From an uncultured delta proteobacterium (GTDB lineage Bacteria; Desulfobacterota; Desulfovibrionia; Desulfovibrionales; Desulfovibrionaceae), in the NCBI GenBank assembly GCA_903835685.1, contig CAILNX010000016.1, positions 1 through 64,000 of the forward strand: a stretch of 64,000 nt of DNA. Direction: 5' to 3'. The notes beneath the pieces are model-generated. The model searched no databases. It saw nothing but the letters and a program-made list of their open reading frames with translations, and was not told the origin of the DNA. Numbering within the stretch: position 1 is the first letter of the stretch; each line of letters opens with the position of its first letter. Shown in pieces: positions 30,910 to 51,494 of this stretch. A program made the translations under genes and the position numbers.

Positions 30910-31052
30910 CCCCCCATTTTAGGCTTGACAACGCCTTCGATAACCCGGCGCTTTTATGGTAACAACTACCGGCTATCGAGGGGTGGGTACCCTGGCTGTA
31001 CCCTAGCTCTACCCTATCCCAGGGGTGCTCCAGCGTGAGGGTCAAATTTTCC
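30910..31052 (+). repeat. 143-bp shared upstream element, copy 3 (before the virion operon)
   Basis: It has the same 143-bp length and order as the other copies, with TTGACA and three TACCCT hexamers 11 bp apart. By eye it has about six mismatches to copy 2 (for example GATAACCC for GATGACCC). It ends only 38 nt before the first gene of the phage structural operon, so it probably contains or directly controls the late promoter. Confidence 0.92.
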
Positions 31053-31090
31053 ATCCTAGGGTTCCTTTTGTCAGACGAGAGGAGGAACCC

Positions 31091-31429
31091 ATGGATTTGG
31101 AACCGCTGGACGACAGCCCATTGACCCTGGCCGAACTGCGCGCCGCCCTGCGCGACATCGTCACGGAATCCGTGCGCGAGACGGTCCAGGAGACCGTCCG
31201 GGCCGAGATGGCCGGACCCTTTCGCGTGGACCCCGAGATCCACTATCAGCACCATCAGATGCTCACGGCCTGCGCCCGCACCCGGGCGGCCTGGGAGGCG
31301 GACCACGCCTTTATCGCCGACCTGCGGCGCGGGGCGGACCTGGCCAAGGGCGCGGTCTTGAAATCCCTCATGGGAGCCCTGGTCACGGCCGTGCTGGCCG
31401 GGCTGTTCCTCCTGTTCCGCAAGGTCTGA
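31091..31429 (+). CDS. First gene of virion operon: small C-terminally anchored protein
   Basis: The protein is 112 aa from ATG 31091 (GAGAGGAGGAACCC). The N-terminal ~85 residues are charged and helical (LRDIVTESVRETVQETVRAE), and the C-terminus is one membrane helix (LMGALVTAVLAGLFLLF) ending in basic residues. The topology suits a tail-anchored phage protein. A holin-like or head-assembly accessory role is possible but not demonstrated. TerS follows after 2 nt. Confidence 0.7.
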   Translation: MDLEPLDDSPLTLAELRAALRDIVTESVRETVQETVRAEMAGPFRVDPEIHYQHHQMLTACARTRAAWEADHAFIADLRRGADLAKGAVLKSLMGALVTAVLAGLFLLFRKV

Positions 31430-31431
31430 GC

Positions 31432-31965
31432 ATGGCCAGGCGCACCCTAAAAATTTCCCCTCCGGTGGAGCCCCTCAACCCTTCGGGCCTGTTTCCCCCA
31501 GAAGGCCCCGGCCCGACCGACGCCGTTCTTCCTTCCGGTGTCGGCCCCGCTGTGGGCTCTGTCGTCGCCGGTCCCTCCACCCCTGCTGGCCCCGAGTCGG
31601 CCGACGCCGTTTCTCCTTCCGGCGTCCCCGGCCCGTGCGGCCCCCGGGACCAGGTCCAGGCCAACAGCCTGGGCCTGGCCCGGGACAGCGCGGGCCTGGC
31701 CTTTGCCCGGCTCCGCGCCCTGGCCGAGTGCGGGGACCCCAAGGTGGAGCTTCCGGCCATCAAGGAAATCCTGTCCTGGGCCTGGGGCAAACCGGCCCAG
31801 AGCCTGAACCTGGAAGGGGACCTGGGCCTGGCCGACCTGGCCCGGCTCCTGGCCCGGGCCGCTGGCGACGACGAGGGACTCCTGCCCCGGACCAAGGGAC
31901 AGGCCCGCCAGCCCCGGAACACCCCGGAAAAAACCAACACAAAGAAGAAACCCCATGGCGCTTGA
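31432..31965 (+). CDS. Terminase small subunit-like protein
   Basis: The protein is 177 aa. The first ~75 residues are Pro/Ser/Gly-rich. Residues ~80-120 (SLGLARDSAGLAFARLRALA, then VELPAIKEILSWAWGKPAQS) match the helical core of phage small terminase proteins ending in a WGKPxQ motif. A charged tail follows (TPEKTNTKKKPHG). It should recognise the DNA to be packaged and hand it to TerL. It overlaps the TerL start by 11 nt. Confidence 0.72.
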   Translation: MARRTLKISPPVEPLNPSGLFPPEGPGPTDAVLPSGVGPAVGSVVAGPSTPAGPESADAVSPSGVPGPCGPRDQVQANSLGLARDSAGLAFARLRALAECGDPKVELPAIKEILSWAWGKPAQSLNLEGDLGLADLARLLARAAGDDEGLLPRTKGQARQPRNTPEKTNTKKKPHGA

Positions 31966-33352
31966 TCCCTCGGTCATCGAAAGCCTCATTCCCAGTCTCG
32001 TGCCCCTGCGCGAGGACCCGGTGCTGTTTGTGCGCACGGTGCTCTCGGCCGAGCCCACGGACCAGCAGGCCGCGCTCCTGTCCGCCATGGCCGCGCCCGG
32101 CGCGCATGTGGCCGTGCGCTCGGGCCACGGCACGGGCAAGACCACGGCCCTGGCCTGGCTGGTGCTCTGGTTCGTGTCCTTACGCGAGGACTGCCGGGTG
32201 CCCTGCACCGCGCCCACGGGCCATCAGCTTTCCGACGTGCTCTGGCCCGAGATCGCCCGCTGGCGGGAGCGCATGACCCCCTGGTTCCGGGACCGCCTGG
32301 ACCTGACCCACGACCGGGTCTGCGCCCAAGGGGCCGAGCGCACCCAGTTCGCCGTGGCCCGCACCGCCCGCCGGGACAATCCCGAGGCCCTGCAAGGCTT
32401 CCACGCCCAGAACATCCTCTTTGTCATCGACGAGGCCTCGGGCGTGGCCGACTCCGTGTTCCAGGCCGCCGAGGGCGCGCTGTCCACCAGAAGCGCGCGC
32501 GTGGTCATGGCCGGCAACCCCACCCAGGTGAGCGGATACTTCCACCGGGCCTTTCACGCTGACCGCAACCTGTGGACGACCCTGCATTTCAGTTGTCTGG
32601 ACAGCCCCCTGACCGACCCCCACTACGCCCGGACCATGGCCGCAAAATACGGGCCGGACTCGGACATCTGCCGGGTCCGGGTCCTGGGCGAATTCCCTAG
32701 GGCCGGGCTCTGCGGGCTGATCTCCCCGGAACTGGCGGATACGGCCGCCACCCGCACCCTGACCGAGGCCTCCTGCGCCCACGCGCCCGTGGTCTTCGGC
32801 CTGGACGTGGCCCGGTTCGGGGACGACGCCTCGGTGCTCGTGCTGCGCCAGGGCCTGCACTGCCGGGTCCTGGGCCGCTGGCAGGGCCTGGACACCATGC
32901 GCGTGGCCGACCTGACCGCGCGGTTCGAGGCCGAGCTTGCGCCCGCCGGAATGTTCATCGACGCCGGGGCCATGGGGCCAGGGGTCATCGACCGCTTGCG
33001 CCAACTCGGGCGCAGGCCCATCGAGGTGCATTTTGGGGGCAAGGCCCTGCGCGACGACCGCTTTGTCAACCGCCGGGCCGAGATGTGGGCCGGAATACGG
33101 GACTGGCTCCTGGCCGGGGGCGCGCTGCCGCCCTGCCCGGAGTTGAAGCAGGACGTAAGCGGCCCGGAATACTTCTTCGACCCGGCCGGGCGGCTGGGGC
33201 TGGAGCGCAAGGAGGACATGAAACGGCGGGGGCTGCCCAGCCCGGACCACGGGGACGCGCTGGCCCTGACCTTTGCCCAGGACGTGGCCCTGCCCGGCCA
33301 GGAGACCCAGGACCGGGCCGACTCGGACTTTCAACTCTTTGGAGGCAAGTGA
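31955..33352 (+). CDS. Terminase large subunit
   Basis: The protein is 465 aa. The packaging ATPase has a Walker A (SGHGTGKTT, residues 56-64) and a Walker B (ILFVIDEA with D159-E160). The C-terminal nuclease has the first acidic residue in FGLDVARFGDDASVLV (D284), a second in FIDAGAMGPGVIDRL and the last in SPDHGDALALTFA. All appear intact, so both translocation and cutting should work. Its stop overlaps the next ATG (ATGA). Confidence 0.95.
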   Translation: MALDPSVIESLIPSLVPLREDPVLFVRTVLSAEPTDQQAALLSAMAAPGAHVAVRSGHGTGKTTALAWLVLWFVSLREDCRVPCTAPTGHQLSDVLWPEIARWRERMTPWFRDRLDLTHDRVCAQGAERTQFAVARTARRDNPEALQGFHAQNILFVIDEASGVADSVFQAAEGALSTRSARVVMAGNPTQVSGYFHRAFHADRNLWTTLHFSCLDSPLTDPHYARTMAAKYGPDSDICRVRVLGEFPRAGLCGLISPELADTAATRTLTEASCAHAPVVFGLDVARFGDDASVLVLRQGLHCRVLGRWQGLDTMRVADLTARFEAELAPAGMFIDAGAMGPGVIDRLRQLGRRPIEVHFGGKALRDDRFVNRRAEMWAGIRDWLLAGGALPPCPELKQDVSGPEYFFDPAGRLGLERKEDMKRRGLPSPDHGDALALTFAQDVALPGQETQDRADSDFQLFGGK

Positions 33353-33957
33353 TGGGCGGAGGCGGCGGATTCTTCGATTTCGTGATGCCCGTGGTGGGCG
33401 CGGTCATCGGGAGCATGATCGCTCCCGGGATCGGCACGGCCATCGGGGCCGGAATGGGCGGGACCACCGGAGGCCTGGCCGACGGCCGGGACTTCGGGTC
33501 CGCGCTCATGCAGGGAGCCCTGTCCGGGGTCGGGTCCTACGCGGCCGGGGCCATGGGCGGCGAGATGTTCGGGACCCCCGAGGGGACGATTTTACCAACC
33601 GGAGGCGTTGGGGGCGGCGCATCCATAACTTCGGCGTTCACCCAAACGGCCACCCAGGCGGCCATGTCCGGGGCCGTGGGCAGCCTGATGGGCGGCGCGC
33701 TCTCCGGGTCCGGGCTCATGAGCCCGGCCAAGTACAACCTGCCGGACGTGCCCAAGTTCAACGCGGGCGACGGCCTGGACTTCCTGAACCAGGACCCGGC
33801 CCAAGCCCCCACGACCGACCAGGTCCAGGCCGAGGCCGAGCGCAAGCGCGCCCTGCTCATGAAAGAGGCCGTGGGACCGGCCGACCTGGTGCTCACGTCC
33901 GCGAGCCTGGCCGCCCAGCATCCTGAACTGGCCAAGAAATCCCTGTTGGGGGCCTGA
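33352..33957 (+). CDS. Glycine-rich putative virion protein
   Basis: The protein is 201 aa from ATG 33352, overlapping the TerL stop. It starts MGGGGGFFDF and has glycine-zipper hydrophobic stretches (FVMPVVGAVIGSMIAPGIGT, then AIGAGMGG; ALSGVGSYAAGAMGGEMFG) typical of membrane-active or ejected phage proteins. The C-terminus (LVLTSASLAAQHPELAKKSL followed by LGA) matches a C-terminal motif also at the end of the 110-aa protein at 34643. Found between TerL and portal in podoviruses of this type; exact role unknown. Confidence 0.7.
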   Translation: MGGGGGFFDFVMPVVGAVIGSMIAPGIGTAIGAGMGGTTGGLADGRDFGSALMQGALSGVGSYAAGAMGGEMFGTPEGTILPTGGVGGGASITSAFTQTATQAAMSGAVGSLMGGALSGSGLMSPAKYNLPDVPKFNAGDGLDFLNQDPAQAPTTDQVQAEAERKRALLMKEAVGPADLVLTSASLAAQHPELAKKSLLGA

Positions 33958-33958: not shown

Positions 33959-34423
33959 ATGGTGCGCCGCGTGAAAGAGGTCCCGGCCCTGTTCGCCGGA
34001 TGGCCCGCGAATTTCGAGTGGTACGAGTTGACCGAACCAGGGCCTGATTCTGAGAGTGGCCCAGGCAATGGCGTCGATTCGGGCGAGGTCCTGGCCGTGG
34101 CCGGGCTGGACTGGGTGAACATCCCGGGCGGGGTGGGCCTGCACCTGGAGATCCTGCCCGGCAAGTGGGGCAAGCCCGCCTACCGGGCCTGCGGAGAGGC
34201 CCTGACCTGGCTCAAGGCCGAGGCCCGGGCGCGGCGCGTCACGGCCATCGTGGGCTCCACCACCAATGCGGCGGACGCCCGGCGCTGGTTCAAGTTCACC
34301 GAACTGTTCGGGTTCACGGCCCAGACCACCATGCTGTTCTCGTTTTGCCGGTTGGATGGGGAAGGAGAGGCCGCCACATCGAGCGGCGCACCCAAGAGCA
34401 AAGAAGAAGAATATTTTTATTGA
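33959..34423 (+). CDS. Phage GNAT-like protein
   Basis: The protein is 154 aa. The core (VAGLDWVNIPGGVGLHLEIL, then YRACGEALTWLKAEARARRV, TAIVGSTTNAADARRWFKFT, ELFGFTAQTTMLFSF) has the strand-helix order of a small acetyltransferase-like fold, with the late GF..... strand. Small GNAT-like proteins are frequent in podovirus head operons; the substrate is unknown. The last ~10 codons (PKSKEEEYFY) are formed by an AT-rich palindromic element. Confidence 0.65.
   Translation: MVRRVKEVPALFAGWPANFEWYELTEPGPDSESGPGNGVDSGEVLAVAGLDWVNIPGGVGLHLEILPGKWGKPAYRACGEALTWLKAEARARRVTAIVGSTTNAADARRWFKFTELFGFTAQTTMLFSFCRLDGEGEAATSSGAPKSKEEEYFY
34391..34421. repeat. AT-rich element overlapping a gene end
   Basis: CCCAAGAGCAAAGAAGAAGA followed by ATATTTTTAT supplies the last codons of the GNAT-like gene. 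The 219-bp gap after it (to 34642) holds a second AT-rich segment (34551-34595) and otherwise nothing recognisable. Confidence 0.5.
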
Positions 34424-34642: not shown

Positions 34643-34975
34643 ATGGGCGGAGGAGGCGGAGGAGCGAGCAGCAGCTCGGGCATGAGCGCGGCGGAATTTT
34701 CCCAGCGCATGAACGAACGCGACGCCGAGTGGCAGACCCAGGTGGCCCAGCGCGACCAGCAGTGGGAGGACCGGGTGAACCAGGAGGGCACGGCCGCCGT
34801 GTCCCAATACCAGACCGCCCAGCAGCAGGCGGCCTACCAGAAAAAGCTGAACAAACCAGCGGGCAAGATCGATTCCGGGGGCACGGGCCTGCCCGCGACC
34901 GTGCTCACCTCGGCCCAGGGCCTGGGCGACGACCCGGCCCCGGACCTGTCCCGCACATCCCTTTTGGGAGGCTGA
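34643..34975 (+). CDS. Small virion-operon protein with shared SLLG C-terminus
   Basis: The protein is 110 aa from ATG 34643 (CAGGAGGTTCCC). It starts with a Gly/Ser run, then a charged coiled-coil region (SQRMNERDAEWQTQVAQRDQ, QWEDRVNQEG) and ends TVLTSAQGLGDDPAPDLSRT then SLLGG. The same end (VLTS, ~15 residues, SLLG) closes the 201-aa protein at 33352. Similar short proteins with a TLLG-type end lie next to portal genes in many podoviruses. Function unknown. Confidence 0.7.
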   Translation: MGGGGGGASSSSGMSAAEFSQRMNERDAEWQTQVAQRDQQWEDRVNQEGTAAVSQYQTAQQQAAYQKKLNKPAGKIDSGGTGLPATVLTSAQGLGDDPAPDLSRTSLLGG

Positions 34976-34979: not shown

Positions 34980-36737
34980 ATGAACCGCGAAGACATGGAC
35001 GACGTCCGGCGCGACCTGCGCCAGCTCACCGCCGAGCGCACCCGCTGGGAGGCCCACTGGCGGGACCTGTGCGACTACATCCTGCCCCACCGGGGCCGCT
35101 TTCCGGAGAACGGGCGCGGGCCGGACGACGGCACTGAGCGCATGGACAAGGTGGTGGACTCCACGGCCTACCGGGCCAGGCGCATCCTGGCCTCGGGCCT
35201 GCAATCCGGCCTGACCTCGCCGTCAAGGCCCTGGTTCAAGCTGGGGATTTCCGACCCGGACCTGTCCCGCCGCCAGGAGGTCAAGACCTGGCTCTCGGAA
35301 GTGGAAAACCGCATGCGCGAGGCCCTGTCCCAGTCCAACTTCTACAACGCCATCCACGCCCTGTACGAGGAGCTGTCCGCCTTTGGCACGGGCGTGCTCT
35401 ACGCCGAGGCCGGGGGAACGCCCGGAAGCGCCGGGGTCAATGGTCAAAACATGGGCAGGGCTCAGGCCCGCAATCACAGTCAATCCGGCCCGCGCGGCCC
35501 CTTTGGCCAGAGCGCCCAGATCACCCAGGAGTTGAACCGGGGCCTGCGCTTCCAGGCCCTGACCGTGGGCGAATACTTCCTGTCCGTGAACATGGACGGG
35601 GACATCGACACCCTGTACCGCCGCTTCACCATGCCCGCCCGGGCCATGGCCCAGCGCTTCGGGGCCGAGGCCCTGTCCGATTCGGCCCGCACGGCCCTGG
35701 CCGCCAACCCCTACAAGCACCTGGAGGTGGTCCACCTGGTCCGGCCCCGGCGGGCCGGGTCGCGCACCATGCTCCCCTTCGAGAGCGTGCACTTCGAGCA
35801 GGCCGCGCCCGGCGGTGAGGTCCTGGCCGACAGCGGGTATTCCGAGTTCCCGTACATGGTGGCCCGCTGGGACGTGTCCGGCTGGGATTCTTATGGGCGC
35901 GGGCCAGGCATGGTCGTGCTCCCGGACGTCAAGATGCTCCAGGAACTGGCCAAGGACCGCCTGAAGGCCGTGAAAAAGGCCGTGGACCCGCCCCTGACCA
36001 TGCCCGCGACCTTGAAGGACCGGGTCAAGACCTTCCCGGGGGGCCTGAACTACGTGGACGCGGCCGGACACCTGGCCGCCCGGCCCCTGTACCAGATATC
36101 CCCGGACATGGGGTCGCTGGCCGTGTCCATCGAGGACACCCGCTCGGCCATCAAGGACGGGTTCTTCAACGACCTCTTCCTCATGCTGGCCATGAGCCGC
36201 AGCGCACAACCGGTCACGGCCCGGGAGATCGCCGAGCGCCACGAGGAAAAGCTGCTGGTGCTCGGCCCGGTCATCGAGCGCCTGCACTCCGAACTGCTCT
36301 CGCCCCTGATCGACCGGGTCTTCGGCCTGCTGTTCGCCTCCGGACGCCTGCCCGTCCCGCCCCGGGAGCTGGCCGGACGCCGCATCAAGACCGAGTACAT
36401 CTCCACCCTGTCCCAGGCCCAGAAGATGGTCGGCACCCAGTCCATCGAGGCCGTGACCGCGTTCGTGGGCAACGTGGCCCGCATGCACCCCGAGGCCCTG
36501 GACAAGATCGACCTGGACCAGGTGGTGGACCGCTACGCCGACCTGCTCGGCGCGCCGAGTGAGATCATCCGATCCGACGAGGACGTGACCCGGCTGCGGA
36601 CCAACCGCGAAGAGGCCCGGCAGTTGGCCCAGCGCCAGGAAACGGCCCAGGCCGTGGCCCGGGGCGCGCGGGACCTGGCCCGGACCCCCACCACGGGCCA
36701 GAACGCCCTGACATCCTTAACCGGGCAGGAGGGCTGA
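34980..36737 (+). CDS. Portal (head-to-tail connecting) protein
   Basis: The protein is 585 aa, fitting the podovirus connector family (T7 gp8/BPP-1-like). Recognisable parts: RWEAHWRDLCDYILPHRGRF, DSTAYRARRILASGLQSGLT, then PSRPWFKLGI; LYEELSAFGTGVLYAE; MLQELAKDRLKAVKKAVDPP; FFNDLFLMLAMSRSAQPVTA and REIAERHEEKLLVLGPVIER. The C-terminal helix is charged. It forms the dodecameric DNA channel and the base for tail assembly. Confidence 0.93.
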   Translation: MNREDMDDVRRDLRQLTAERTRWEAHWRDLCDYILPHRGRFPENGRGPDDGTERMDKVVDSTAYRARRILASGLQSGLTSPSRPWFKLGISDPDLSRRQEVKTWLSEVENRMREALSQSNFYNAIHALYEELSAFGTGVLYAEAGGTPGSAGVNGQNMGRAQARNHSQSGPRGPFGQSAQITQELNRGLRFQALTVGEYFLSVNMDGDIDTLYRRFTMPARAMAQRFGAEALSDSARTALAANPYKHLEVVHLVRPRRAGSRTMLPFESVHFEQAAPGGEVLADSGYSEFPYMVARWDVSGWDSYGRGPGMVVLPDVKMLQELAKDRLKAVKKAVDPPLTMPATLKDRVKTFPGGLNYVDAAGHLAARPLYQISPDMGSLAVSIEDTRSAIKDGFFNDLFLMLAMSRSAQPVTAREIAERHEEKLLVLGPVIERLHSELLSPLIDRVFGLLFASGRLPVPPRELAGRRIKTEYISTLSQAQKMVGTQSIEAVTAFVGNVARMHPEALDKIDLDQVVDRYADLLGAPSEIIRSDEDVTRLRTNREEARQLAQRQETAQAVARGARDLARTPTTGQNALTSLTGQEG

Positions 36738-37039
36738 TGGACCCCTATCGCCAGGAGCGCGACGCGCTCTCCCGCCTGGACCGCCAGGGCAAGCGCAAGC
36801 TGCTCGACCTGATCGCGGCCTACAAGGAGGTCTTTCTGGGCTCGGCCGCCGGGCGGCTGGTCTTGAACGACGTCCTGGCCCGCTGCCGGGTCTTTTCCAC
36901 CACCTTCACCGGAAACTCCCAGACCTTCTTCCTGGAGGGCGGCCGGGCCATCGGCCTGCAGATCCTGGAAATGCTGGAGGTCGGGAAGTTCGAGGACCTG
37001 CAAACCTTACTCAACCCCGAGGAGGACAACCATGGATGA
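36737..37039 (+). CDS. Bbp19-like structural protein
   Basis: The protein is 100 aa, overlapping the portal stop by one base. AAGRLVLNDVLARCRVFSTT, then FTGNSQTFFLEGGRAIGLQI is the core of the Bbp19 family (named from Bordetella phage BPP-1), a small protein encoded between portal and scaffold/capsid genes. A structural or assembly role is assumed from position. Confidence 0.8.
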   Translation: MDPYRQERDALSRLDRQGKRKLLDLIAAYKEVFLGSAAGRLVLNDVLARCRVFSTTFTGNSQTFFLEGGRAIGLQILEMLEVGKFEDLQTLLNPEEDNHG

Positions 37040-37901
37040 TTTTTTCTTGGCCGCAACGGATCACACCCAGGCGGCTCAAGGGAATCCGGCCAATTCGACG
37101 GCCGGTTCGATGTCCGGAAATGACGGACAGGACTACTGGCAGGGCTACGGCCAGGACTCCGGGCCTGGCTATGGGATTGGCTCCGGGACTGGCTCCGGGA
37201 TTGGCCTGAACCGCGACGGAATCCGCTTCAACCCGGACACGGGCGAGGCCATCACCGGGCCTGGCGGCGCGTACCTCAGCCAGCCCGGCGACCCCTCCGG
37301 CAACCAGCCGGGCAACCCCTCCGCCGATCAGGCCAGCGCCGACTGGCGGCGCAACCTGGGGCCGGACCTGGCCGGGCATCAGGCCATCTCGGCCTTTGCC
37401 TCGCCCGCTGACCTGGCCCGAGCCTATCTGGCCGCCCAGGAGCGCCTGGGGCCTGCCCCCCAGGAGTACCGCCTGGACCTGCCTCCGCAGGTTCCCCGCG
37501 ACGAGGCCCAGATCGGCCTGGCCCGCAACCTGGCCCGGGAAATCGGCCTGAGCCAGGGCCAGCTCGACCGCCTGGTGCGTTTCGACGTGAACCGCAGCCA
37601 GGTATTGGCCCAGGCCCAACAGGACCAGGTGATCCGGGGCCTGGCCACCTTGCGGGCCCAGTGGGGTCCGGCCTTCCCGGCCCAGGTGGACCTGGCCCGG
37701 CGCGGGGCCTCGGCCTTTGCCCCGCCCGACTTGAAGGCCTTCATGGCCGCCGACCCCCTGGTCGGGAACAACCCCGGACTGATCCGGCTCTTCGCCGACC
37801 TGGGCCGCCGGATCACCGAAGACCGCCTGGTCCCGCCCGGCAGCGGGGCCAGGGAAAAGACCATGGGCGAACTGCTCTACCCTGACTTCAACCGCGACTA
37901 G
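37032..37901 (+). CDS. Scaffold-like head-assembly protein
   Basis: The protein is 289 aa, overlapping the previous gene by 8 nt and 9 nt before the capsid gene, the classical scaffold position. The N-terminus (MDDFF) and Gly/Ser/Asn-rich region are disordered; FNPDTGEAI at 66-74 recurs in cargo 2. A helical middle (PLVGNNPGLIRLFADLGRRI, LARAYLAAQERLG) is scaffold-like. The C-terminal end EKTMGELLYPD (275-285) followed by FNRD recurs as EKTLGEWLYP(D) in cargo 1 and 2. In P22-type phages the scaffold C-terminus binds coat protein, so a shared motif could place cargo inside the procapsid. Confidence 0.82.
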   Translation: MDDFFLAATDHTQAAQGNPANSTAGSMSGNDGQDYWQGYGQDSGPGYGIGSGTGSGIGLNRDGIRFNPDTGEAITGPGGAYLSQPGDPSGNQPGNPSADQASADWRRNLGPDLAGHQAISAFASPADLARAYLAAQERLGPAPQEYRLDLPPQVPRDEAQIGLARNLAREIGLSQGQLDRLVRFDVNRSQVLAQAQQDQVIRGLATLRAQWGPAFPAQVDLARRGASAFAPPDLKAFMAADPLVGNNPGLIRLFADLGRRITEDRLVPPGSGAREKTMGELLYPDFNRD

Positions 37902-39713: not shown

Positions 39714-40274
39714 ATGGCCAGCACCGTGCACATCTGCAACCTGGCCCTGGCCAAGCTGGGGGCCAAATCCATCGAGTCCCTGGACGAGAACTCCAAGGAG
39801 GCCCGCCTGTGCAGCCTGTTCTACGAAAGCGTGCGCGACGACCTGCTCCGCGCCCATCCCTGGGGTTTCGCGGCCGCCCGGGCCGTCCTGGCCCGGCTCT
39901 CGGACGGCCCGGCCTTCGGCTACTCCGCCGCCTTTCAGCTCCCGGCCGACTGCCTGAAGGTCCGCACCCTGAACGAGGACCCGGCCGCCCTGTTCGCGGT
40001 GGAGGGCCGCGCCCTGCTTACCGACGAAGCGGCCGCGCGCATCACCTACACCGCGCGCCTTCAGGACCCCACCGGCTTCGACCCGCTCTTTGTGCAGGCC
40101 CTGGCCGCCCGGTTGGCCGCCGAGCTCTGCGTGCCCATCGCCAAAAGCGCGGCCCTGTCCGACCGGCTCTGGCGGGTGTCCGAGGCCATGGGCGAGAGGG
40201 CCGCCCTGGAGGACGCCCGGGAGGGCTCGGCCCAGGTCGTGACCCCCAACCCCTACCTGACCGCCCGGAGCTGA
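39714..40274 (+). CDS. Tail tubular protein A-like (gp11/adaptor)
   Basis: The protein is 186 aa from ATG 39714 (AAGGAGCCTG). HICNLALAKLGAKSIESLDE, then EARLCSLFYESVRDDLLRAH, PWGFAAARAVLARL, YSAAFQLPADCLKVRTLNED and FDPLFVQALAARLAAELCVP are hallmarks of the T7 gp11-type adaptor family that joins portal and nozzle. Intact length. Confidence 0.92.
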   Translation: MASTVHICNLALAKLGAKSIESLDENSKEARLCSLFYESVRDDLLRAHPWGFAAARAVLARLSDGPAFGYSAAFQLPADCLKVRTLNEDPAALFAVEGRALLTDEAAARITYTARLQDPTGFDPLFVQALAARLAAELCVPIAKSAALSDRLWRVSEAMGERAALEDAREGSAQVVTPNPYLTARS

Positions 40275-44923: not shown

Positions 44924-47900
44924 ATGCCGACAACGATTCATGAACCGGGAAAACGCCTGAAGCCCCGGCCCGGCCCCGAGGCCCTGCGCGCGGCCTATGT
45001 GCGCTCGGCCAGCCTGAACCCGGACCAGGCCGCCCGGGCCGCCCGCCTGGCCCACGGCCTGGGCGCGCACCCGGACCTCCTGGCCCAGGACCTGGACCAG
45101 GCCGAGGCCTGGGCCCACGGCCCGGACTTCGCGGGACTCACCCGCACGGCCCCGGTCCTGGCCGGACTGGCCGTGGACCCGGAATTCATGGCCCTGGTGC
45201 GCGACGACCTGGCCGCCCTGGCCGGGCTGGAGCAGGCCTTTGCCCGGGGCGCGGGCCTGGACCAGGTTCTGGAGACGGCCCGCAACTGCCGCCTGGGCAG
45301 GCGCGATCCCGAGGCCCTGGGCCGGGTGGCCCTGGCCCTGAACCGGCGCTACCGGGCCTTTCCCGAGGTTGTGTCCGTGGATGTGTCCGGCCCGCAGGCC
45401 CAGGCCGGAAATACTGTCGCGAATCTGGCCCATATCCTGGGTCTGGACCCGGGCCGGGCCGAGCGCCTGGCCCGGGCGGGCGCACCCCTGGCCCTGCCCC
45501 TGGCCCGGATGTTCCGGGCCTGCGGGGCTGATGCCAAATTCGACCTCCGGGACCTGGCCGGGCGGGTGGTTTTGTCTTCGGACAGCGGCCCCAAGAAACC
45601 AGAAAAGAATAAGAAAAAAGCAATAGATACTGGGGTGGCCCTGGCCCCGCTCTTCCCCCACGGCCTGCCGGTGGAAGAGGGGAAAAAGGCCTACGCCGCC
45701 GCCTGCCAGGCTGCGGACACGGCCGACCGGGCCGAGGCCGCGCGCTTGCGCTTGGCCGATCCCAGCCGACCGGCCCCGGAGCTTGTGGCCCGGGCCAAGG
45801 CCGAGGCCAAGGACGGACCCTGCCGCGCCCTGTGGCGGGCCATAGAGGACAAGGGCGGCTTGGCCCGGCCCGAACTGGCCCGGCTGTTCGACCCGGACAC
45901 CGTGGCCGCCCTGGCGGGTAAGGGTCTGGTCAAGGGCGAGGGCCAGGGCGGAGCCTCGCTTGCGGCCCTGGCCCGGCGCTTCAAACTCACCCGGGAGCGC
46001 ACCGCGCATCTGCTCCTCTCCCGGCCCGGCCCCAAGGAATACGTAGCCGCCCGGGCCGCCGAACTGGCCCGGGCCAACGCTTCCGATCACGCCGGGCGAA
46101 ATGCCACGGGCCAGGCCTGGCGGGTCCCGGCCACCACCGAACGCCTGGAAGTCCTGGGCCGGGAAGTGGCCGTGCTGGCGTGCATGGCCGGGCAAGGCGT
46201 CCCGGACCCGAGGCCGGAATTCCTCCACTCCCTGGGCCAGGAACTGGCCTCCCGGCCCGTGGCCGAACTGGGCTTGGATATCCCCGGGCTGGAGCGGGCC
46301 GGGCTGGCCCTGGGCGAAGAGGCCGCCCGGGCCGTGCAGACCGGAGACGTGAAAACGGCCCTGGACCTGCGCGCCCGGCAATGGCTGGCCCTGACCGCTT
46401 TGGCCGAGGAGCGCCGGGCCTTTCAGTCCGCGCGCCGCCTGACCCGCTTTGCCCGCCTGGGCCTGGCTTCGGCCAAGGCCCAGGGACCGGCCCGGGAGCA
46501 GGCCGAGGCCCTGCTGGCCGAGCACGGGCTCCATCCCGCCCCGCACCGGGTACGCCGCCCGGCCCTGGCCCTGGCCGATTTCGCGGACCAGGAACGCGGC
46601 CCGGCCGGGCTCACCCTGGTGGACATCCCCCAGGCCCTGGCCGAGGACCGCGCCCCCTGCCGGGCCGAATCCCTGACCCTGGCCGGACTGTCCCGGGCCG
46701 CCCGGGCCTGCCGCCAACTCGACCACCTGGCCCGCACTGCGCAGACTTCCCTGGCTGGGCAGGCCTCCCTGGCGGCCAAGGCCAAGGGCGACCTGGCCGA
46801 GCGAGGCAAGGCCGCGCTTGCGGCCGCCCGCGCCCTGCCCAGGCGCGCGGCCCCGGGCCTCTCAGCCTCCGGCAGCCCCCAGGCCGTGCGGGACAGCCTG
46901 GTCCGGGCCGGGCACCTCCATCTGCTCCCCCCGCGTCTGGCCGATTTTGGCCTGGGCGGACCAAAGAAGCCGAAAGAATCAGACGGTTTGGGCGACCACC
47001 TGTTCGGGCCGCTCACCCGGGGTCTGGACCAGGAAGAGGCCAAGGTCCGCCCGGCCCTGGAACGCCTGCGCGGCCTGTTCCGGGCCGCCCGAGACTCCGG
47101 CGGCATGAGCGGGACCAGCGCTGAAACCTGGTCCCGGCTCTTCCTCCTGCCGGACCCAATGGCGGACCACGGGGCGAACCAGGGGCCAAACCAGGACGCA
47201 GGCCCCTCGCCAGTCTCCCCGACCGGTTCCGGCCTGGACCTGACCGCCTCGGAACTGACCCTGCTGGCCCTGTACGCCGGAAGCCGGGACGGCCGCGAGG
47301 CCCTGGAACGGTCTTTGGGACTGCCCTTGGGACTCCCCCTAAGCTATGCCGGGCCAGACCTTGACGGCCTCCTGTCCCGCCTGCCCGAGGGCAGCCGCAA
47401 CCTGGTGCTGGGGGTCTGGAAACTCCTGAAGGACCTGCGCGAACCGGCCAGCGTGGCCCGGCGCAGGCTCACCGGCACGCCCCTGCCCGAGCCCGGACTG
47501 ATGCCCCTCGGGCTTGGCGGCCAGAGCGCGGCCGGGGGCTGGTTCCCGGTCCTGGAGAACGGCCCGGACCACTCCCTGGGCCAGTCCGCAGGCCAGTCCA
47601 CGGGCCGCCCTGTCGGCCGATCCATGCCCCGCTCGGCCTTCCCCCTGCTGGCCTGGCCCGAGCCCGGCGGCCTCCAATCCGGCCCGTCCGGATACGGCCA
47701 ATCCCGCTCCGGCCCGCGCCTGGACATCGGGGCCGTGGTCCAGGCGGTGCTGGACCTCATCCGGGCCGCCTGCCTGGCTCCGGCCGTGCGCGATGCGGAC
47801 CAGCTCCTGCGCGATCCGGACCTGGCCCAAACCCTCGCCGAGCGCCTGGGGCCTGGCCCGGCCCTGGCTGTGACCGCCCTGCCCCGGGTTGCGGCCGGGA

Positions 47901-48799
47901 TCGGGCCGAGCGTCCTCGCCCTGGCCCAGGACCTCCTGGCCCCGGTGCGGGACCGGGACCTGCGGGACAGCCTGGGCCAAGGCGCGCAGGCCCTGGCCGA
48001 CCGGGTGGACGCGGCCCGGACCCGGGACATCCTCGGGCCGGACGCCCCCCTGGCCCTGGCCCGGGCCTGGCGCTCGGTGGTCCTGGATTCCGGGACCGTG
48101 CTGGACCTGGCCCGCAGCCTGGCCCCGGACTTGGTCCCCCTGCTGGACGGGAGCCGGGACAGCCTGCCCAAGCCCAATCTCAAGACCGACGCCAAGACCG
48201 ACGTCAAGACCGGCCCCAAGCCCAATCTCAAGATTGGCCCCAAGGCCGACGGCCCTGCCCTGGCCCTGGCCCTGGCCATGGAACGGGCGGCCCGGTCCTG
48301 GTCCCGCATGATCGCCTGGCTGGCCGGGCTGCTCGTTGGCCTGGACCGGCCCAGGACCGCCGGAACAGGCGCGGATGCGGTACGATCACGGGAAATGGCC
48401 ATGGAAAAGGCCCTGGAAAAGGCCCGACGGGCCGTCCTGGCCCTGCGCGTCAGCGACCCTGGAACCCCGGTCCCGGGCCTGGGCCTGGCCCTACGCAAGC
48501 TTCAGGCCGCCCGTCTGACCGCCCCTCTGACCGACAGTCTGACCGCCCCCCGGACCAACAGTCCGGCCGCGCCCCAATCCGGCTCATGGCCCGAGGCGCA
48601 AAACAGCCGTCAATCCGGCCCTGGCCCGGACGTGAACCTCCTGCTGGCCCCGGCCCTGTTCGAGGCCCTGATCCTGGGTGCGGGCCGCGCCCCGGACCTG
48701 GACCTGGCCCTTTCTCTTCTGGCCCAGCGCGCGCCCGGGGCCGAGGACCTGGCCCTGGCCGCCTGCGCCGGGCCAGGCCTGTGGCGGGTGGGTTTTTAA
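44924..48799 (+). CDS. Large internal virion protein, 1291 aa
   Basis: I chose ATG 44924 (CAGAGGAGGCGTC). The 1291-aa protein is dominated by Ala, Leu, Arg, Gly and Pro, with many helical blocks (LNPDQAARAARLAHGLGAHP, LAALAGLEQAFARGAGLDQV) and proline-rich linkers. By position (last and largest internal gene before the fibre) it corresponds to gp16-type ejection proteins, which are 1000-1500 aa. I could not see a lytic transglycosylase motif (no clear catalytic ES..W segment). Two AT-rich palindromic elements lie in frame inside it, encoding PKKPEKNKKKAID (near residue 224) and PKKPKES (near residue 681). These break the otherwise uniform composition. Confidence 0.75.
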   Translation: MPTTIHEPGKRLKPRPGPEALRAAYVRSASLNPDQAARAARLAHGLGAHPDLLAQDLDQAEAWAHGPDFAGLTRTAPVLAGLAVDPEFMALVRDDLAALAGLEQAFARGAGLDQVLETARNCRLGRRDPEALGRVALALNRRYRAFPEVVSVDVSGPQAQAGNTVANLAHILGLDPGRAERLARAGAPLALPLARMFRACGADAKFDLRDLAGRVVLSSDSGPKKPEKNKKKAIDTGVALAPLFPHGLPVEEGKKAYAAACQAADTADRAEAARLRLADPSRPAPELVARAKAEAKDGPCRALWRAIEDKGGLARPELARLFDPDTVAALAGKGLVKGEGQGGASLAALARRFKLTRERTAHLLLSRPGPKEYVAARAAELARANASDHAGRNATGQAWRVPATTERLEVLGREVAVLACMAGQGVPDPRPEFLHSLGQELASRPVAELGLDIPGLERAGLALGEEAARAVQTGDVKTALDLRARQWLALTALAEERRAFQSARRLTRFARLGLASAKAQGPAREQAEALLAEHGLHPAPHRVRRPALALADFADQERGPAGLTLVDIPQALAEDRAPCRAESLTLAGLSRAARACRQLDHLARTAQTSLAGQASLAAKAKGDLAERGKAALAAARALPRRAAPGLSASGSPQAVRDSLVRAGHLHLLPPRLADFGLGGPKKPKESDGLGDHLFGPLTRGLDQEEAKVRPALERLRGLFRAARDSGGMSGTSAETWSRLFLLPDPMADHGANQGPNQDAGPSPVSPTGSGLDLTASELTLLALYAGSRDGREALERSLGLPLGLPLSYAGPDLDGLLSRLPEGSRNLVLGVWKLLKDLREPASVARRRLTGTPLPEPGLMPLGLGGQSAAGGWFPVLENGPDHSLGQSAGQSTGRPVGRSMPRSAFPLLAWPEPGGLQSGPSGYGQSRSGPRLDIGAVVQAVLDLIRAACLAPAVRDADQLLRDPDLAQTLAERLGPGPALAVTALPRVAAGIGPSVLALAQDLLAPVRDRDLRDSLGQGAQALADRVDAARTRDILGPDAPLALARAWRSVVLDSGTVLDLARSLAPDLVPLLDGSRDSLPKPNLKTDAKTDVKTGPKPNLKIGPKADGPALALALAMERAARSWSRMIAWLAGLLVGLDRPRTAGTGADAVRSREMAMEKALEKARRAVLALRVSDPGTPVPGLGLALRKLQAARLTAPLTDSLTAPRTNSPAAPQSGSWPEAQNSRQSGPGPDVNLLLAPALFEALILGAGRAPDLDLALSLLAQRAPGAEDLALAACAGPGLWRVGF
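45589..45622 (+). repeat. AT-rich element inserted in frame in the 1291-aa gene (copy a)
   Basis: CCCCAAGAAACCAGAAAAGA followed by ATAAGAAAAAAG matches the left arm of the intergenic palindromes (compare 9343). It adds a Lys-rich segment to the protein without breaking the frame; TTTGTCTTCGG lies just upstream. Confidence 0.55.
46959..46983 (+). repeat. AT-rich element in frame in the 1291-aa gene (copy b)
   Basis: GACCAAAGAAGCCGAAAGAA followed by TCAGACGGTTTGG is a shorter version of the same left arm, encoding PKKPKESDG. Confidence 0.45.
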
Positions 48800-48835: not shown

Positions 48836-50104
48836 ATGACCGTGGCGAGCACTTTGTCCAAGGTGAGTTACGCGGCCGACGGCAGCCTGGCCGCCTTCCC
48901 CTTTCCCTTCCGGGTCCTGACCCCCCGGGACCTGAAGATGGCCCTGCGCACCCCGGACGGGACCGAGACCGCCCTGGCCTTTCCGGCCGGGTACAGCGTG
49001 ACCGGCGCGGGCCAGGACGCGGGCGGCACCGCTACCCTGGCCCAGGCCCCGGCCGCCGGGCAGACCGTGGTCCTGTACCGGGACCTGGCCCTGACCCAGG
49101 AACTGGACCTGGCCAACAACGACCCTTTTGACGCCGACCAGGTGGAAGGGGCCTTCGACCGCCTGACCATGATCGCCCAGCAGCTCAAGGAGCAGGCCGA
49201 CCGGGCCTTGACCTACGCCGTGTCCACCCCGACGGCCGAGATCATGAGCGCCACGGAGTATCTGGCGGCCGTGAACGCCAAGGTGTCGGCGGCCCAGTCC
49301 GCACAGTCCGGGGCTTTGGCGGCCCAGGGCCAGGCGGAAGCGGACGCGGCCCAGGCCACGGCCCAGGCCGAGAACGCGGAGGCCTCCAAGGTCGCGGCCC
49401 AAACGGCCAGGAGCTCTGCCGAGGCGGCCCAGGACGCGGCCCAGACCTCGGGTGCGGCCGCCCAGTCCGCCCAGGCCGCCGCCGCCACCTATCAGTCCGC
49501 CGCCCTGTTAAGCGCCCAGGCCGCCCAGTCCTCGGCCATGTCCGCCGCTGCCGCCCAGGCCGGAGCCCAGACCGCCGAAGCCAGCGCCTTGGCCATGGTG
49601 AACGCCACGGCCTGGGCCTCGGGGACCGCCTACACGGCCAATCAGTGCGTGATCTACGCAGGGCAGGCCTACCGGGCCATCGCGGGCAGCACCGGCGTGA
49701 CCCCGGGCACGGACCCGAGCAAATGGCGGCTGCTCGGCTTCGACGCCACGGCCTACACCACGGCCGCGCCCACGCTCACAGGAACCGCCTCGGCCAACGA
49801 GGGGACCACGGCCAGCGGGAGCGTCTCCAACTTCGACGCGGCGGTCGCCTACGTCTGGACCATTCCGAGCGCGCTGCAATCCACCTGGAGCTTCAACAGC
49901 GCCAACGGGGCCTTCAGCTTCACCCTGCCCCTGGTCTCGGCCGACACGGCCTACACCTTGAGCCTGTGCGCCACCAAGGCGGGCGAACTGCGCTCGGCCG
50001 CCGGGACCAGGACCGTGACCAGCCTGGACATCTCCATCCAGGCCGGGCCGACCCTCACCTTCACCGACTCGACGGCCGGTTGGCCCGACGGCGATTTCAG
50101 CTAG
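48836..50104 (+). CDS. Tail fibre protein with T7-type N-terminus
   Basis: The protein is 422 aa (CAAGGAGAACGCCC before the ATG). Residues 1-130 match the particle-binding N-terminal domain of T7-like fibres (SYAADGSLAAFPFPFRVLTP, then RDLKMALRTPDGTE, NNDPFDADQVEGAFDRLTMI, AQQLKEQADRAL). Residues ~150-250 are an Ala/Gln-rich coiled coil. At ~265-300 a small module (WASGTAYTANQCVIYAGQAY then RAIAGSTGVTPGTDPSKW) resembles chitin-binding CBM5/12 domains. The C-terminal part looks Ig-like or beta-sandwich. No chaperone domain is seen. Confidence 0.88.
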   Translation: MTVASTLSKVSYAADGSLAAFPFPFRVLTPRDLKMALRTPDGTETALAFPAGYSVTGAGQDAGGTATLAQAPAAGQTVVLYRDLALTQELDLANNDPFDADQVEGAFDRLTMIAQQLKEQADRALTYAVSTPTAEIMSATEYLAAVNAKVSAAQSAQSGALAAQGQAEADAAQATAQAENAEASKVAAQTARSSAEAAQDAAQTSGAAAQSAQAAAATYQSAALLSAQAAQSSAMSAAAAQAGAQTAEASALAMVNATAWASGTAYTANQCVIYAGQAYRAIAGSTGVTPGTDPSKWRLLGFDATAYTTAAPTLTGTASANEGTTASGSVSNFDAAVAYVWTIPSALQSTWSFNSANGAFSFTLPLVSADTAYTLSLCATKAGELRSAAGTRTVTSLDISIQAGPTLTFTDSTAGWPDGDFS

Positions 50105-50169
50105 GAGGCGGAGCATGAAGGATCGAAAAACCAAGATGATAAGAAATAATACATTCAAGGAGGATCACC

Positions 50170-51270
50170 ATGTCTGACCTGAAACTCGTTGATGCCGGGG
50201 CGCACTCGGTCGGGGTGAACAACAGCAACGCACGGCAGTTCGTCTCGGCCACGCCGGAATTCAAGATCACCAGCCCGCTGGAGTTCACCTCCATCGCTGG
50301 CACGGCCTCGGCCCCGACCATGCAGCACGCCCAGAGCGGAAAAATTTCCGCTGGCGACGAACTTCTGTTCAAGCCCACGGGCAGCAACACCCTGGCGGCC
50401 GTGACCGTGGGCGGGGTGAGCGAGTCCCCCGTGTCCGGGAGCGTTACCCCAGGAGCCACGGATTGGGAGGGAAGCCCTTCGCTTTTCAACCTCGCATCCG
50501 GGTCAGCCTCGAACAACAGCAGCAGCGGATACATCAATTTGAAAAAAGTGTTTTCGGGCGACTTCACCATCACCCTGACCATCAACGACCTGCACAATGG
50601 AGGATATACCGAGTATCTCGGCCTGGCCCTGGCAAGCAGCTACACCCCAGGAACGACCGGACCATCCACCGGGTATCATATCGCCGGAGGGGGAGGGAGC
50701 GGGGTCAATTTCAATATCTGCAAAAGCGGGGGGCAGGTTGTGGCCGGAACCGACTACACGGCCGCCAGGGTCCTTGAGTTCAAGCGTGCGGGTTCGACAT
50801 TCACGATCAAATACAACGGTGCGACCCTTTACACGGACGCATCCTGCATCGCAAACGACCTGGTCATGTGGTTCGGCACCAATGTCGGGCAAGCCAATTC
50901 CCCGAACATATCCGGGATATCCTACCCTGGTGTGACCGGCTACACCTCCACCCTCTCCGGCCTCTCCCCGGCCCAGTCCGTCCTGCCCGAAAAGGTGTTC
51001 AAGATTCGCGCGGACAAGACCAAGGAACTCATGCACATCGCCCGCCTGATCCAGGACGCCACGCCCGTGGACGCCGATTTCGCAAGCGCCTCGGCCATTG
51101 CCAGCATGGTCTACGCCGCAGGCCCGCAGATCACCGTGACCGGGTCCAAGGTGACGTTTGCCGACGACGCGACCAAGAAACGCCTGGCCCTGCGCCTGCG
51201 CGGGGATTTCACCACCGTGGGAGCCCGGGCCAAGTCCGCCAAACTCTATACCGAGGAGAGGACCGCATGA
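50170..51270 (+). CDS. Second fibre/receptor-binding protein with LamG-like domain
   Basis: The protein is 366 aa from ATG 50170 (AAGGAGGATCACC). Residues ~1-95 are beta-rich. Residues ~97-260 (GYINLKKVFSGDFTITLTIN, EYLGLALASSYTPGTTGPST, VLEFKRAGSTFTIKYNGATL) fit a concanavalin/laminin-G-like carbohydrate-binding domain. The DNA here (about 50470-50940) is visibly less GC-biased than on either side, suggesting that the tip domain was exchanged. The C-terminal ~100 residues (KIRADKTKELMHIARLIQDA, KKRLALRLRGDFTTVGARAK) are helical plus strand. It probably decides the receptor. Confidence 0.72.
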   Translation: MSDLKLVDAGAHSVGVNNSNARQFVSATPEFKITSPLEFTSIAGTASAPTMQHAQSGKISAGDELLFKPTGSNTLAAVTVGGVSESPVSGSVTPGATDWEGSPSLFNLASGSASNNSSSGYINLKKVFSGDFTITLTINDLHNGGYTEYLGLALASSYTPGTTGPSTGYHIAGGGGSGVNFNICKSGGQVVAGTDYTAARVLEFKRAGSTFTIKYNGATLYTDASCIANDLVMWFGTNVGQANSPNISGISYPGVTGYTSTLSGLSPAQSVLPEKVFKIRADKTKELMHIARLIQDATPVDADFASASAIASMVYAAGPQITVTGSKVTFADDATKKRLALRLRGDFTTVGARAKSAKLYTEERTA

Positions 51271-51494
51271 GACACGACATCGATGTGAGCCAGCCCGGGG
51301 CCGAGGTGCACAGCCTGGTGCCCGGGTGCGGCCAGGAGCGGGTGCTGCGCGGGGAGAAGATCACCCCGGAGTACGTGCTGGGGTTCGCGGCCGAACTGGC
51401 GGCCATCCAGGACCCGGCGGCCAAGGCCTTCTGCCGGAGGCTGCTGGAGGTGCTTCTGAGCCGGGCGGCCGTGGCCGAGGTGGCCGGCGGGTAG
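51267..51494 (+). CDS. Small protein at the end of the virion operon
   Basis: The protein is 75 aa; its ATG overlaps the stop of the fibre gene (ATGA), so translation is coupled. HDIDVSQPGAEVHSLVPGCG, then ITPEYVLGFAAELAAIQDPA and AFCRRLLEVLLSRA are helical. It could be a fibre-assembly accessory. A GC-rich hairpin without a T-run (51503-51535) follows and ends the recognisable phage region. Confidence 0.65.
   Translation: MRHDIDVSQPGAEVHSLVPGCGQERVLRGEKITPEYVLGFAAELAAIQDPAAKAFCRRLLEVLLSRAAVAEVAGG

What the first reader, a model, noticed from the sequence alone, without database searches (positions are those of the whole stretch)
30910..51494. Complete podovirus head-tail operon without integrase, repressor or lysis genes: GTA-like candidate
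All structural genes from terminase to fibres look intact and host-like in composition, but no integrase, repressor, DNA polymerase, holin/endolysin pair or att repeats are seen at either side. Phage-like replication genes lie 20 kb away among housekeeping genes. Dispersed, co-regulated, intact head genes are the pattern of domesticated gene transfer agents. A GTA-like particle (Dd1) was described biochemically in Desulfovibrio desulfuricans; whether this operon is related is unknown.
Basis: partly seen in the sequence, partly recalled or inferred. Interest (0 to 1): 0.82.

Follow-up and report, generated by a model that had tools for sequence, protein, structure and literature searches.

The report
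Phage-derived particle loaded with toxins
A bacterium of the Desulfovibrio family appears to keep the head-and-tail genes of a short-tailed phage under the same promoter region as a scattered family of toxin-like genes, most of which carry the phage scaffold protein's own tail tag, which suggests that the gutted phage has been turned into a toxin-delivering particle rather than being an ordinary prophage or gene transfer agent.

Summary
In detail: window 31091-51494 is an intact one-strand head-tail operon of an epsilon15-type podovirus without integrase or early genes beside it, among housekeeping genes. But it does not stand alone. The ~150-bp leader starting at 30910 has nine more copies in this genome (89-96% identical). 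One of the ten precedes the phage operon, eight precede paralogous proteins, one ends a contig. The eight look like polymorphic toxins: shared N-termini, swapped C-terminal domains (M15, M23, serum-amyloid-A, unassigned); the six tested lack an export-like N-terminus, while the next gene has one in six of six readable cassettes, as periplasmic immunity proteins do. Six toxins carry AREKTLGEWLYP-like motifs, the C-terminal end of the operon's own scaffold-position protein. In 13,039 ORFs of 382 held sequences the motif occurred only at scaffold C-termini of related clusters and in these toxins. No T6SS or contractile sheath gene was found. Best reading: a domesticated podovirus particle whose capsid is loaded with scaffold-tagged antibacterial toxins. 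Shown: operon, shared leader, tag, toxin-immunity layout. Inferred: toxicity, loading, release, injection. GTA activity is not excluded, nor shown. No genome of the same genus was held, so vertical inheritance is untested.

The parts
30910..31060 (+). leader copy in front of the phage operon (three 11-bp tandem units GTACCCTgGCT/GTACCCTaGCT/CTACCCTaTCC inside)
   Evidence: nine further genome copies, 89-96% identical
28186..28328 (+). leader copy in front of toxin 28413-29291
   Evidence: 96% identical to the 30910 copy
61418..61566 (+). leader copy in front of the M23 toxin
   Evidence: 94% identical
1340..1483 (-). leader copy in front of toxin 451-1197
   Evidence: 93% identical over 144 bp
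31091..31429 (+). operon gene 1, holin-like (one C-terminal hydrophobic stretch); inference
31432..31965 (+). small-terminase position; Pro/Gly/Ser-rich N-terminus, no family recognised
31955..33352 (+). large terminase, ATPase and nuclease motifs present by eye
   Evidence: PHROG 2 E 3e-42
33352..33957 (+). glycine-rich protein, unknown
33959..34423 (+). unknown; acetyltransferase-like only by eye
   Evidence: no Pfam match
34643..34975 (+). small protein, unknown
   Evidence: weak Phage_scaffold match below cut-off
34980..36737 (+). portal (head-tail adaptor)
   Evidence: PHROG 332 E 1e-153; 36-39% to epsilon15, BPP-1, Cobetia phage Carin1
36737..37039 (+). small head-region protein
   Evidence: PHROG 528, unknown function
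37032..37901 (+). scaffold-position protein, directly before the capsid gene (PHROG 3742 unknown; PHROG 458 labelled protease); ends GAREKTMGELLYPDFNRD
37848..37886 (+). C-terminal tag AREKTMGELLYPD of the scaffold-position protein, shared with six toxins
37911..38894 (+). major capsid protein
   Evidence: PHROG 212 E 8e-86; 79% to IMG/VR locus L111
39006..39413 (+). decoration-like head protein (role inferred from place)
   Evidence: PHROG 427, unknown function; 75% to L111
39481..39711 (+). small protein
39714..40274 (+). tail protein
   Evidence: PHROG 394 E 9e-57 for the longer frame 39435-40274
40278..42389 (+). tail protein
   Evidence: PHROG 376 E 4e-195
42393..43049 (+). internal-protein-like
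   Evidence: position and sequence only
43218..44777 (+). internal-protein-like
   Evidence: position only
44924..48799 (+). large ejection-protein candidate with LPD22 domain
   Evidence: PF18834 E 5e-16
48836..50104 (+). tail fibre with CBM5/12
   Evidence: PHROG 1640 E 2e-33; PF02839
50170..51270 (+). fibre-associated protein, 35% to the gene at the same place in phage contig G312
51267..51494 (+). last gene, 71% over 75 aa to the last-but-one + strand gene of G312
28413..29291 (+). toxin candidate A, shared N-terminus, own C-terminus
28536..28574 (+). scaffold-type tag AREKTLGEWLYPD (aa 42-54) in toxin A
29484..30743 (+). Sel1-repeat lipoprotein-like immunity candidate
   Evidence: PF08238; hydrophobic N-terminus
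451..1197 (-). toxin candidate with scaffold-type tag; the contig ends before a neighbour can be read
61687..62844 (+). M23-peptidase toxin candidate, N-terminus shared with the C11 toxin; no scaffold tag
   Evidence: PF01551 E 1e-9
62863..63705 (+). FGE-sulfatase-fold immunity candidate with export-like N-terminus
   Evidence: PF03781

Best explanation
The operon is the late half of a temperate epsilon15-type podovirus without integrase, repressor, replication or endolysin genes, sitting under a leader that also stands before eight toxin-like genes elsewhere in the genome (shown). Six of the toxins carry a copy of the scaffold-position protein's C-terminal peptide (shown); in other phages that end of the scaffold holds the capsid protein (recalled, not tested here). 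Inferred steps: under one regulator the cell makes scaffold, capsid and tagged toxins together; the tag draws toxins into the procapsid as cargo; the particle is finished with its short tail, released by lysis, binds a target cell through the fibre and ejects the toxins into the periplasm, where wall- and lipid-attacking domains act; kin are protected by exported immunity proteins. Whether DNA is packaged too is open; TerL looks intact.
For: Leader: ten copies, nine of them 89-96% identical to the operon's, ~125-bp core nearly invariant; in 9 of 9 copies with readable downstream sequence a gene follows in the same orientation within 145 bp. Rough chance that one of ten lies within 50 bp upstream of the operon on the right strand: 6e-5. 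Tag: six of eight toxins score 47-62 against the scaffold's last 25 residues; 0 of 2000 shuffles of each reach that; the best of 65 control proteins scores 34. A strict motif, written after seeing the match, occurs in 24 distinct contexts among 13,039 six-frame ORFs of 382 held (partly overlapping) sequences: 19 are scaffold C-termini, 3-7 residues from the end, 5 are these toxins (six genes). A loose ending [LIMFV][YFW][PG] in the last 22 residues is found in 101 of 131 proteins preceding a capsid gene, 63 of 70 in IMG/VR loci, and in 1 of 61 other window proteins. Toxin layout: 80-88% identity over the first ~185 aa and no further match (28413, C38, C22_2041); 68% over 239 columns, then M15 against M23 (C11, 61687); SAA domain E 8e-30, a family placed among conflict effectors and polymorphic-toxin-related systems (PMC12419801, abstract and passages). 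Neighbours: in 6 of 6 readable cassettes the next gene has an export-like N-terminus (7 of 7 proteins) against 7 of 38 host genes; 0 of 6 toxins tested. No VipB and no contractile sheath in the 97.6%-complete genome. Origin: a fuller related phage contig, G312, has (by eye) integrase, methylase, transglycosylase-like, Rz-like and holin-like genes and an HTH-type TerS upstream of the same late order, and matches the operon's last three genes at 64% (over 106 aa), 35% and 71%. Toxin-like cassettes, one with RHS-type shell and one with a Tlde1 domain, sit inside the related cluster of genus g8 in 5 of 16 readable slots.
Against: Two of eight toxins (M15, M23) lack the tag. By BLAST alone the tag match is weak, E 0.018-0.37, and a stricter first pattern fitted only 28 of 131 scaffold-position proteins. 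The tag is internal in the toxins, C-terminal in scaffolds; PHROG 458 labels the scaffold-position protein a protease. Scaffolds usually leave the head before DNA enters (recalled), so retention of cargo is unexplained. The system is seen in one genome: toxin family in 1 of 288 family genomes; not found in IMG/VR with one exact leader pattern and one peptide pattern; the leader was not sought in other genomes. A hairpin followed by T-rich sequence at 29325 separates toxin A from its neighbour, so they may not be one transcript. The second shared stretch (FNPDTGE) is not above controls. Toxicity and immunity are inferred. In g8, 7 of 16 slots hold kinase or stress genes, 3 are empty or nearly so, 1 holds other genes, and the slot proteins lack the tag. 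The genome has 20 tyrosine-recombinase matches, so other prophages may exist.
Confidence: 0.66

Rival explanations
1. Pyocin-like regulon without loading: the phage operon makes a particle of its own and the toxins are free bacteriocins, switched on together and released by the same lysis. S-type and R/F-type pyocins share promoter boxes in this way (recalled).
For: Shared leader with tandem repeats; toxin/immunity-like cassettes; two toxins lack the tag.
Against: Does not explain why six toxins carry the scaffold C-terminal peptide. Pfam recognised no receptor-binding domain in the toxins.
Confidence: 0.14
2. Gene transfer agent: a domesticated particle that carries random host DNA; the co-regulated wall hydrolases (M15, M23, perhaps the unassigned group) are its dispersed lysis enzymes.
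For: No early genes, TerL intact, TerS-position protein without recognised HTH, dispersed loci with one leader; related clusters kept widely in two genera.
Against: Eight paralogues with swapped tips, an SAA domain and exported-looking neighbours fit toxins better than endolysins. Vertical keeping of this operon could not be tested, and the nearest genus lacks it in the stretches read.
Confidence: 0.1
3. Cryptic prophage: a recent phage insertion that lost its left arm, with the leader upstream by chance.
For: Mosaic relation to a phage contig: capsid 79% but portal 33%, TerL no match; single genome; missing left arm.
Against: All 20 genes open; leader position; shared tag.
Confidence: 0.07
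4. Toxin satellites of a helper phage: the cassettes ride in capsids of this element or of an infecting relative, so that the tag serves the cassettes' own spread.
For: The tag resembles scaffold ends of related free phages and clusters.
Against: No tyrosine recombinase on contigs C11, C22, C38, C46 or C2; toxin family not found in IMG/VR.
Confidence: 0.03

Closest known systems
MuF polymorphic toxins of temperate phages (PMC5576092, PMC11699363; passages read)
   Same: Toxin with immunity gene, proposed to be loaded into the phage head through a head-protein domain and delivered with DNA injection.
   Different: There the carrier is the MuF domain of a portal-associated head protein and the gene lies in a prophage, mostly of Firmicutes, also Bacteroidales; here the tag resembles the scaffold's C-terminal peptide, and the toxins lie dispersed on the chromosome and share a leader with a phage-derived operon that has no early genes.
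Dd1 gene transfer agent of Desulfovibrio desulfuricans (putative island Ddes_0703-0715 in PMC5701242, TerS Ddes_0720 in PMC6854486; passages read)
   Same: Head-tail genes kept in the same bacterial family; TerS said to lack a DNA-binding domain (PMC11841831, passage).
   Different: A cluster with a capsid homologue in 36 of 79 genomes of genus g54 (Desulfovibrio by record titles) is probably Dd1, but the named strain was not found among the records; its capsid is about 41% identical to this one, and no toxin cassette was seen by eye at the 3' end in two g54 genomes and one g26 genome.
epsilon15 / BPP-1-type temperate podoviruses
   Same: Portal 36-39% identical over 97-98%; same late gene order as phage contig G312.
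   Different: No integrase, repressor, replication or endolysin gene.
Extracellular contractile injection systems and T6SS (recalled)
   Same: Phage-derived injector plus polymorphic toxins with loading signals.
   Different: No VipB and no phage-sheath gene in this genome; capsid-bearing short-tailed architecture instead.
Engineered P22 capsids with scaffold-fused cargo; encapsulin cargo peptides (recalled)
   Same: Cargo enters an HK97-fold shell through a scaffold-derived or short targeting peptide.
   Different: Here natural, with toxin-like cargo and with portal and tail genes.

Membership tests
Gene transfer agent | Packages random host DNA, not its whole own genome | not testable with these tools
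   needs DNA from particles
Gene transfer agent | Vertical inheritance in the host lineage | tested here: inconclusive
   no same-genus genome among 288; 1 of 15 g29 genomes has a 38% capsid homologue; AhbC and SDF neighbours lie apart, without operon proteins, in 20 stretches from 15 genomes
Gene transfer agent | No integrase, repressor or replication genes with the cluster | tested here: met
   (tyrosine recombinases and Pfam on 39 flank frames)
Gene transfer agent | TerS without DNA-binding domain | tested here: inconclusive
   no family recognised in P0010; HTH-like TerS candidates by eye in several related phages; P0010 is TerS by position only
Temperate podovirus / prophage | Integrase and att sites | tested here: not met
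Polymorphic toxin system | Conserved N-terminus, variable C-terminal toxin domains | tested here: met
Polymorphic toxin system | Immunity gene downstream | tested here: inconclusive
   6 of 6 readable cassettes have an exported-looking neighbour; protection untested
MuF toxins | MuF domain | tested here: not met
   no MuF match in the eight proteins by Pfam
T6SS effectors | T6SS in the genome | tested here: not met
   VipB 0 matches; E. coli control positive; other T6SS parts not searched
eCIS / contractile tailocin | Contractile sheath in the genome | tested here: not met
   PF04984 0 matches; 3 controls positive; non-contractile tailocins not tested
Dd1 | Same gene island as in D. desulfuricans ATCC 27774 | not tested
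   that strain was not found among the records; only the related g54 cluster was compared

The most novel reading that the evidence does not exclude
A domesticated short-tailed phage serves as a head-bearing toxin injector: dispersed polymorphic toxins mimic the scaffold's capsid-binding C-terminus, are packed into the procapsid as cargo in place of or beside DNA, and are fired into rivals, all under one host-controlled leader. It would be a non-contractile, capsid-loaded counterpart of T6SS and eCIS.
Probability: 0.55. Interest if true: 0.93.

Novelty: categorically new. Interest (0 to 1): 0.88.

Why it matters
The host-owned phage-derived toxin injectors that I can name (T6SS, eCIS; recalled) use contractile tails without heads. 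A capsid used as a toxin hold, with a short transferable peptide as loading tag, would be a new class of bacterial weapon and a natural version of engineered capsid-cargo systems. It also gives a concrete, testable reason why bacteria keep head-tail genes without the rest of the phage, a standing puzzle for clusters filed as GTAs or cryptic prophages, and a search rule: look for a resident cluster's scaffold C-terminal motif in non-phage genes.

Tried and rejected
Prophage with unseen integrase: not supported after Pfam on 39 flank frames and the whole-genome tyrosine-recombinase search and the search for att repeats. Vertical GTA in the nearest genus: no operon protein matched in 20 stretches around AhbC or the SDF symporter from 15 genomes of g29, g49 and g25. 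Known RNA element as leader: Rfam gave one chance-level match elsewhere; RNA fold z -2.0 only. A sigma-70-type scan gave no promoter inside the two leader copies on the + strand. Leader or toxin family in phages: none with one pattern each; ejection protein and tail protein in IMG/VR gave 0 and 1 relatives. The third toxin group looks like SleB by eye, but Pfam, PDB sequence search and AlphaFold (mean pLDDT 33) gave nothing, so it is called unassigned. PADLOC on seven toxins and three other proteins: nothing. The second shared stretch with the scaffold (FNPDTGE) is not above controls. The export test is crude (hydrophobic 11-mer and charge), and among the seven neighbours two are Sel1 proteins and two on C22 are paralogues, so they are not independent. 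The family scan with the toxin alignment scored at most 7 candidates per genome, so more members may exist. Genes around the dispersed cassettes were called but not annotated beyond the toxins and neighbours. Literature searches for a like system: (listings and abstract starts); passages read of PMC5576092, PMC11699363, PMC12419801, PMC12946183, PMC12724379, PMC11841831, PMC11409702, PMC6854486, PMC5701242; of PMC9662315 only a reference-list passage. None of what I saw describes scaffold-tagged toxins; the library holds open papers only. In one search, 131 distinct preceding proteins were kept from 176 loci with a capsid match: identical proteins were dropped, loci without a fitting ORF gave none, and a few of the 131 are wrong frames.


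Full report
What is there. The window is bases 1-64000 of contig C16 (126,471 bases) of a 3.94-Mb genome in 65 contigs, 97.6% complete. Its family is Desulfovibrionaceae: contig G025:C18 of the same family has the length (130,339) of a record titled Desulfovibrionaceae bacterium, found with the capsid alignment. Gene calling gives 20 open genes on the + strand from 31091 to 51494. PHROGs names TerL, portal, major capsid, two tail proteins and a tail fibre, and places a PHROG-3742/458 protein (458 is labelled protease) just before the capsid gene; I call it the scaffold-position protein. The portal is 36-39% identical to epsilon15, BPP-1 and like phages over 97-98% of its length. Recognised flank genes are housekeeping or toxin-antitoxin genes and the cassettes below. 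The only tyrosine recombinase on this contig lies about 50 kb to the right; the contig begins 31 kb to the left. No tRNA and no att-like repeat were found.

Where it came from. The closest capsid found is 79% identical, on an IMG/VR contig of 42 kb (G312, locus L111), but the portal of that contig is only 33% identical and its TerL does not match: phage-like mosaicism. G312 is a fuller temperate phage, though its completeness is not stated: read by eye it has an integrase at one end, early genes, a DNA methylase, a transglycosylase-like gene, Rz-like and holin-like genes and an HTH-bearing TerS, then the same late order; it matches the operon's last three genes at 64% (106 aa), 35% and 71%. 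So the operon is the late arm of such a phage without its left arm.

The leader. A repeat search at the left end showed a 143-bp direct repeat, 28186-28328 and 30910-31052, 96% identical. The whole genome holds ten copies on six contigs (C16 four, C22 two, C11, C46, C38, C2), nine of them 89-96% identical to the operon's; everything else listed is noise. The alignment has a nearly invariant ~125-bp core with three 11-bp tandem units. Eight copies lie 78-145 bp before the start codon of one protein family, one lies 31 bp before the phage operon, and one (C46) ends its contig. The 20-bp core is found four times in the window against 0.01 expected.

The toxin family. The eight proteins share MD(Y/D)W(L/M) at the N-terminus. 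Three share 80-88% over about 185 residues and then nothing detectable; two share 68% over 239 columns and then differ (M15 against M23 peptidase); three share an unassigned C-terminal domain. One tip is a serum amyloid A domain (PF00277, E 8e-30; serum amyloid A chains in the PDB, E 2e-17), a family recently argued to act on lipid head groups and to have been recruited as an effector in bacterial conflicts (PMC12419801, abstract and passages). For six of the eight the contig continues; in six of six the next gene has a hydrophobic, export-like N-terminus, seven proteins in all, against 7 of 38 host genes in the window; six toxins tested have none. Two cassettes stand in tandem on C22, and one stands directly before the phage operon. 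This is the layout of polymorphic toxins with periplasmic immunity. Toxicity and immunity are inferred.

The tag. Comparing toxins with operon proteins gave one recurrent short match, AREKTLGEWLYPD of the toxins with AREKTMGELLYPD near the end of the scaffold-position protein (BLAST E 0.018-0.37). Against the scaffold's last 25 residues six toxins score 47-62; none of 2000 shuffles of each reaches its score; the best of 65 other proteins scores 34; the M15 and M23 toxins do not match. The gene before the capsid gene ends in similar style in most relatives: 101 of 131 distinct proteins have [LIMFV][YFW][PG] in the last 22 residues, 63 of 70 in IMG/VR loci, against 1 of 61 window proteins; a stricter first pattern fitted 28 of 131. 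A strict motif, [KR][TS][IMLV]x[ED]x[LIMFVW]YP, written after seeing the match, was sought in 13,039 six-frame ORFs of 382 held, partly overlapping sequences: 24 distinct contexts, 19 of them scaffold C-termini 3-7 residues from the end, 5 of them the toxins (six genes), nothing else. The C-terminal end of scaffolds is the capsid-binding end in other phages (recalled). So the toxins wear what is probably the scaffold's capsid-binding peptide.

No usual injector was found: no T6SS VipB and no contractile phage sheath in the genome. Other secretion systems were not tested.

Relatives. In 288 genomes of the family 92 have a capsid homologue. Genus g8 has it in 17 of 17 genomes, with collinear genes from the scaffold position to the tail in the five compared; one member's contig is 4,289,847 bases, which I recall as the size of Maridesulfovibrio salexigens, and its capsid gene is split by about 25 kb. 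Between decoration and tail gene these clusters have a slot. In the 16 genomes where both edges were found, 5 hold RHS-core or shared-N-terminus toxin-like genes (recognised by Pfam in one genome, by eye in the others), 7 hold kinase or universal-stress genes, 3 are empty or nearly so and 1 holds other genes. One slot protein has a Tlde1 domain (E 5e-11), another an RHS-type shell (E 4e-14), both from genome G231. Genus g54, Desulfovibrio by record titles, has a capsid homologue in 36 of 79 genomes; five compared share gene order and most of them the left flank. This is probably the published Dd1 island, but that strain was not found among the records. The window's capsid is about 41% identical to that type and 56% to g8. 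The window's toxin family is in no other of the 288 genomes, and its nearest genus lacks the operon beside either flank marker in the stretches read. Thus long keeping is seen for relatives, not for this operon.

Verdict. Shown: an intact late operon without early genes; one leader over it and over dispersed toxin/immunity-like cassettes; a scaffold-type tag on six toxins. Inferred: joint regulation, toxicity, loading into capsids, release, ejection into rivals. Against: two untagged toxins, the internal position of the tag, a single genome, no experiment. A GTA role is not excluded, and the two may coexist, since TerL looks intact and the TerS-position protein lacks the HTH seen in related phages, a trait reported for GTA small terminases (PMC6854486, PMC11841831, passages). 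The nearest published idea is MuF toxins, proposed to ride in phage heads (PMC5576092, PMC11699363, passages). [quoted passage not shown] the passages I read mention no toxin cargo.

Noticed in passing
L191-L198, L371-L381, L034-L036, L338-L339 (genus g8): Head-tail cluster with a capsid homologue in 17 of 17 genomes and a variable slot between decoration and tail gene, holding toxin-like cassettes in 5 of 16 readable genomes and kinase or stress genes in 7.
   Followed up: partly
L199-L208, L292-L316 (mostly genus g54, Desulfovibrio): epsilon15-type cluster with conserved order in five genomes compared and a capsid homologue in 36 of 79, likely the Dd1 island; would give Dd1 a podovirus identity.
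   Followed up: partly
L338-L339 (G235): Capsid gene in two pieces about 25 kb apart in an otherwise conserved cluster.
   Followed up: no
window 51622-52468: Protein with a weak RelB-antitoxin-like C-terminal end (below cut-off) followed by a ParE toxin gene: likely toxin-antitoxin pair just behind the operon.
   Followed up: no
window 31432-31965: Small-terminase-position protein with a Pro/Gly/Ser-rich N-terminus; no family and no match of its C-terminal part in phage records.
   Followed up: partly
L051-L053 (G025) and L203-L204 (G090): Other repeats of about 90-155 bp, in both orientations, within the fetched stretches around the phage cluster; could be ordinary interspersed repeats or leaders of a like kind.
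   Followed up: no
G000 C46:15494-15682 and C38:1-136: Two contigs end in the leader, so more cassettes may be hidden at assembly breaks.
   Followed up: no
window 48836-50104: Tail fibre carries a carbohydrate-binding module CBM5/12.
   Followed up: no
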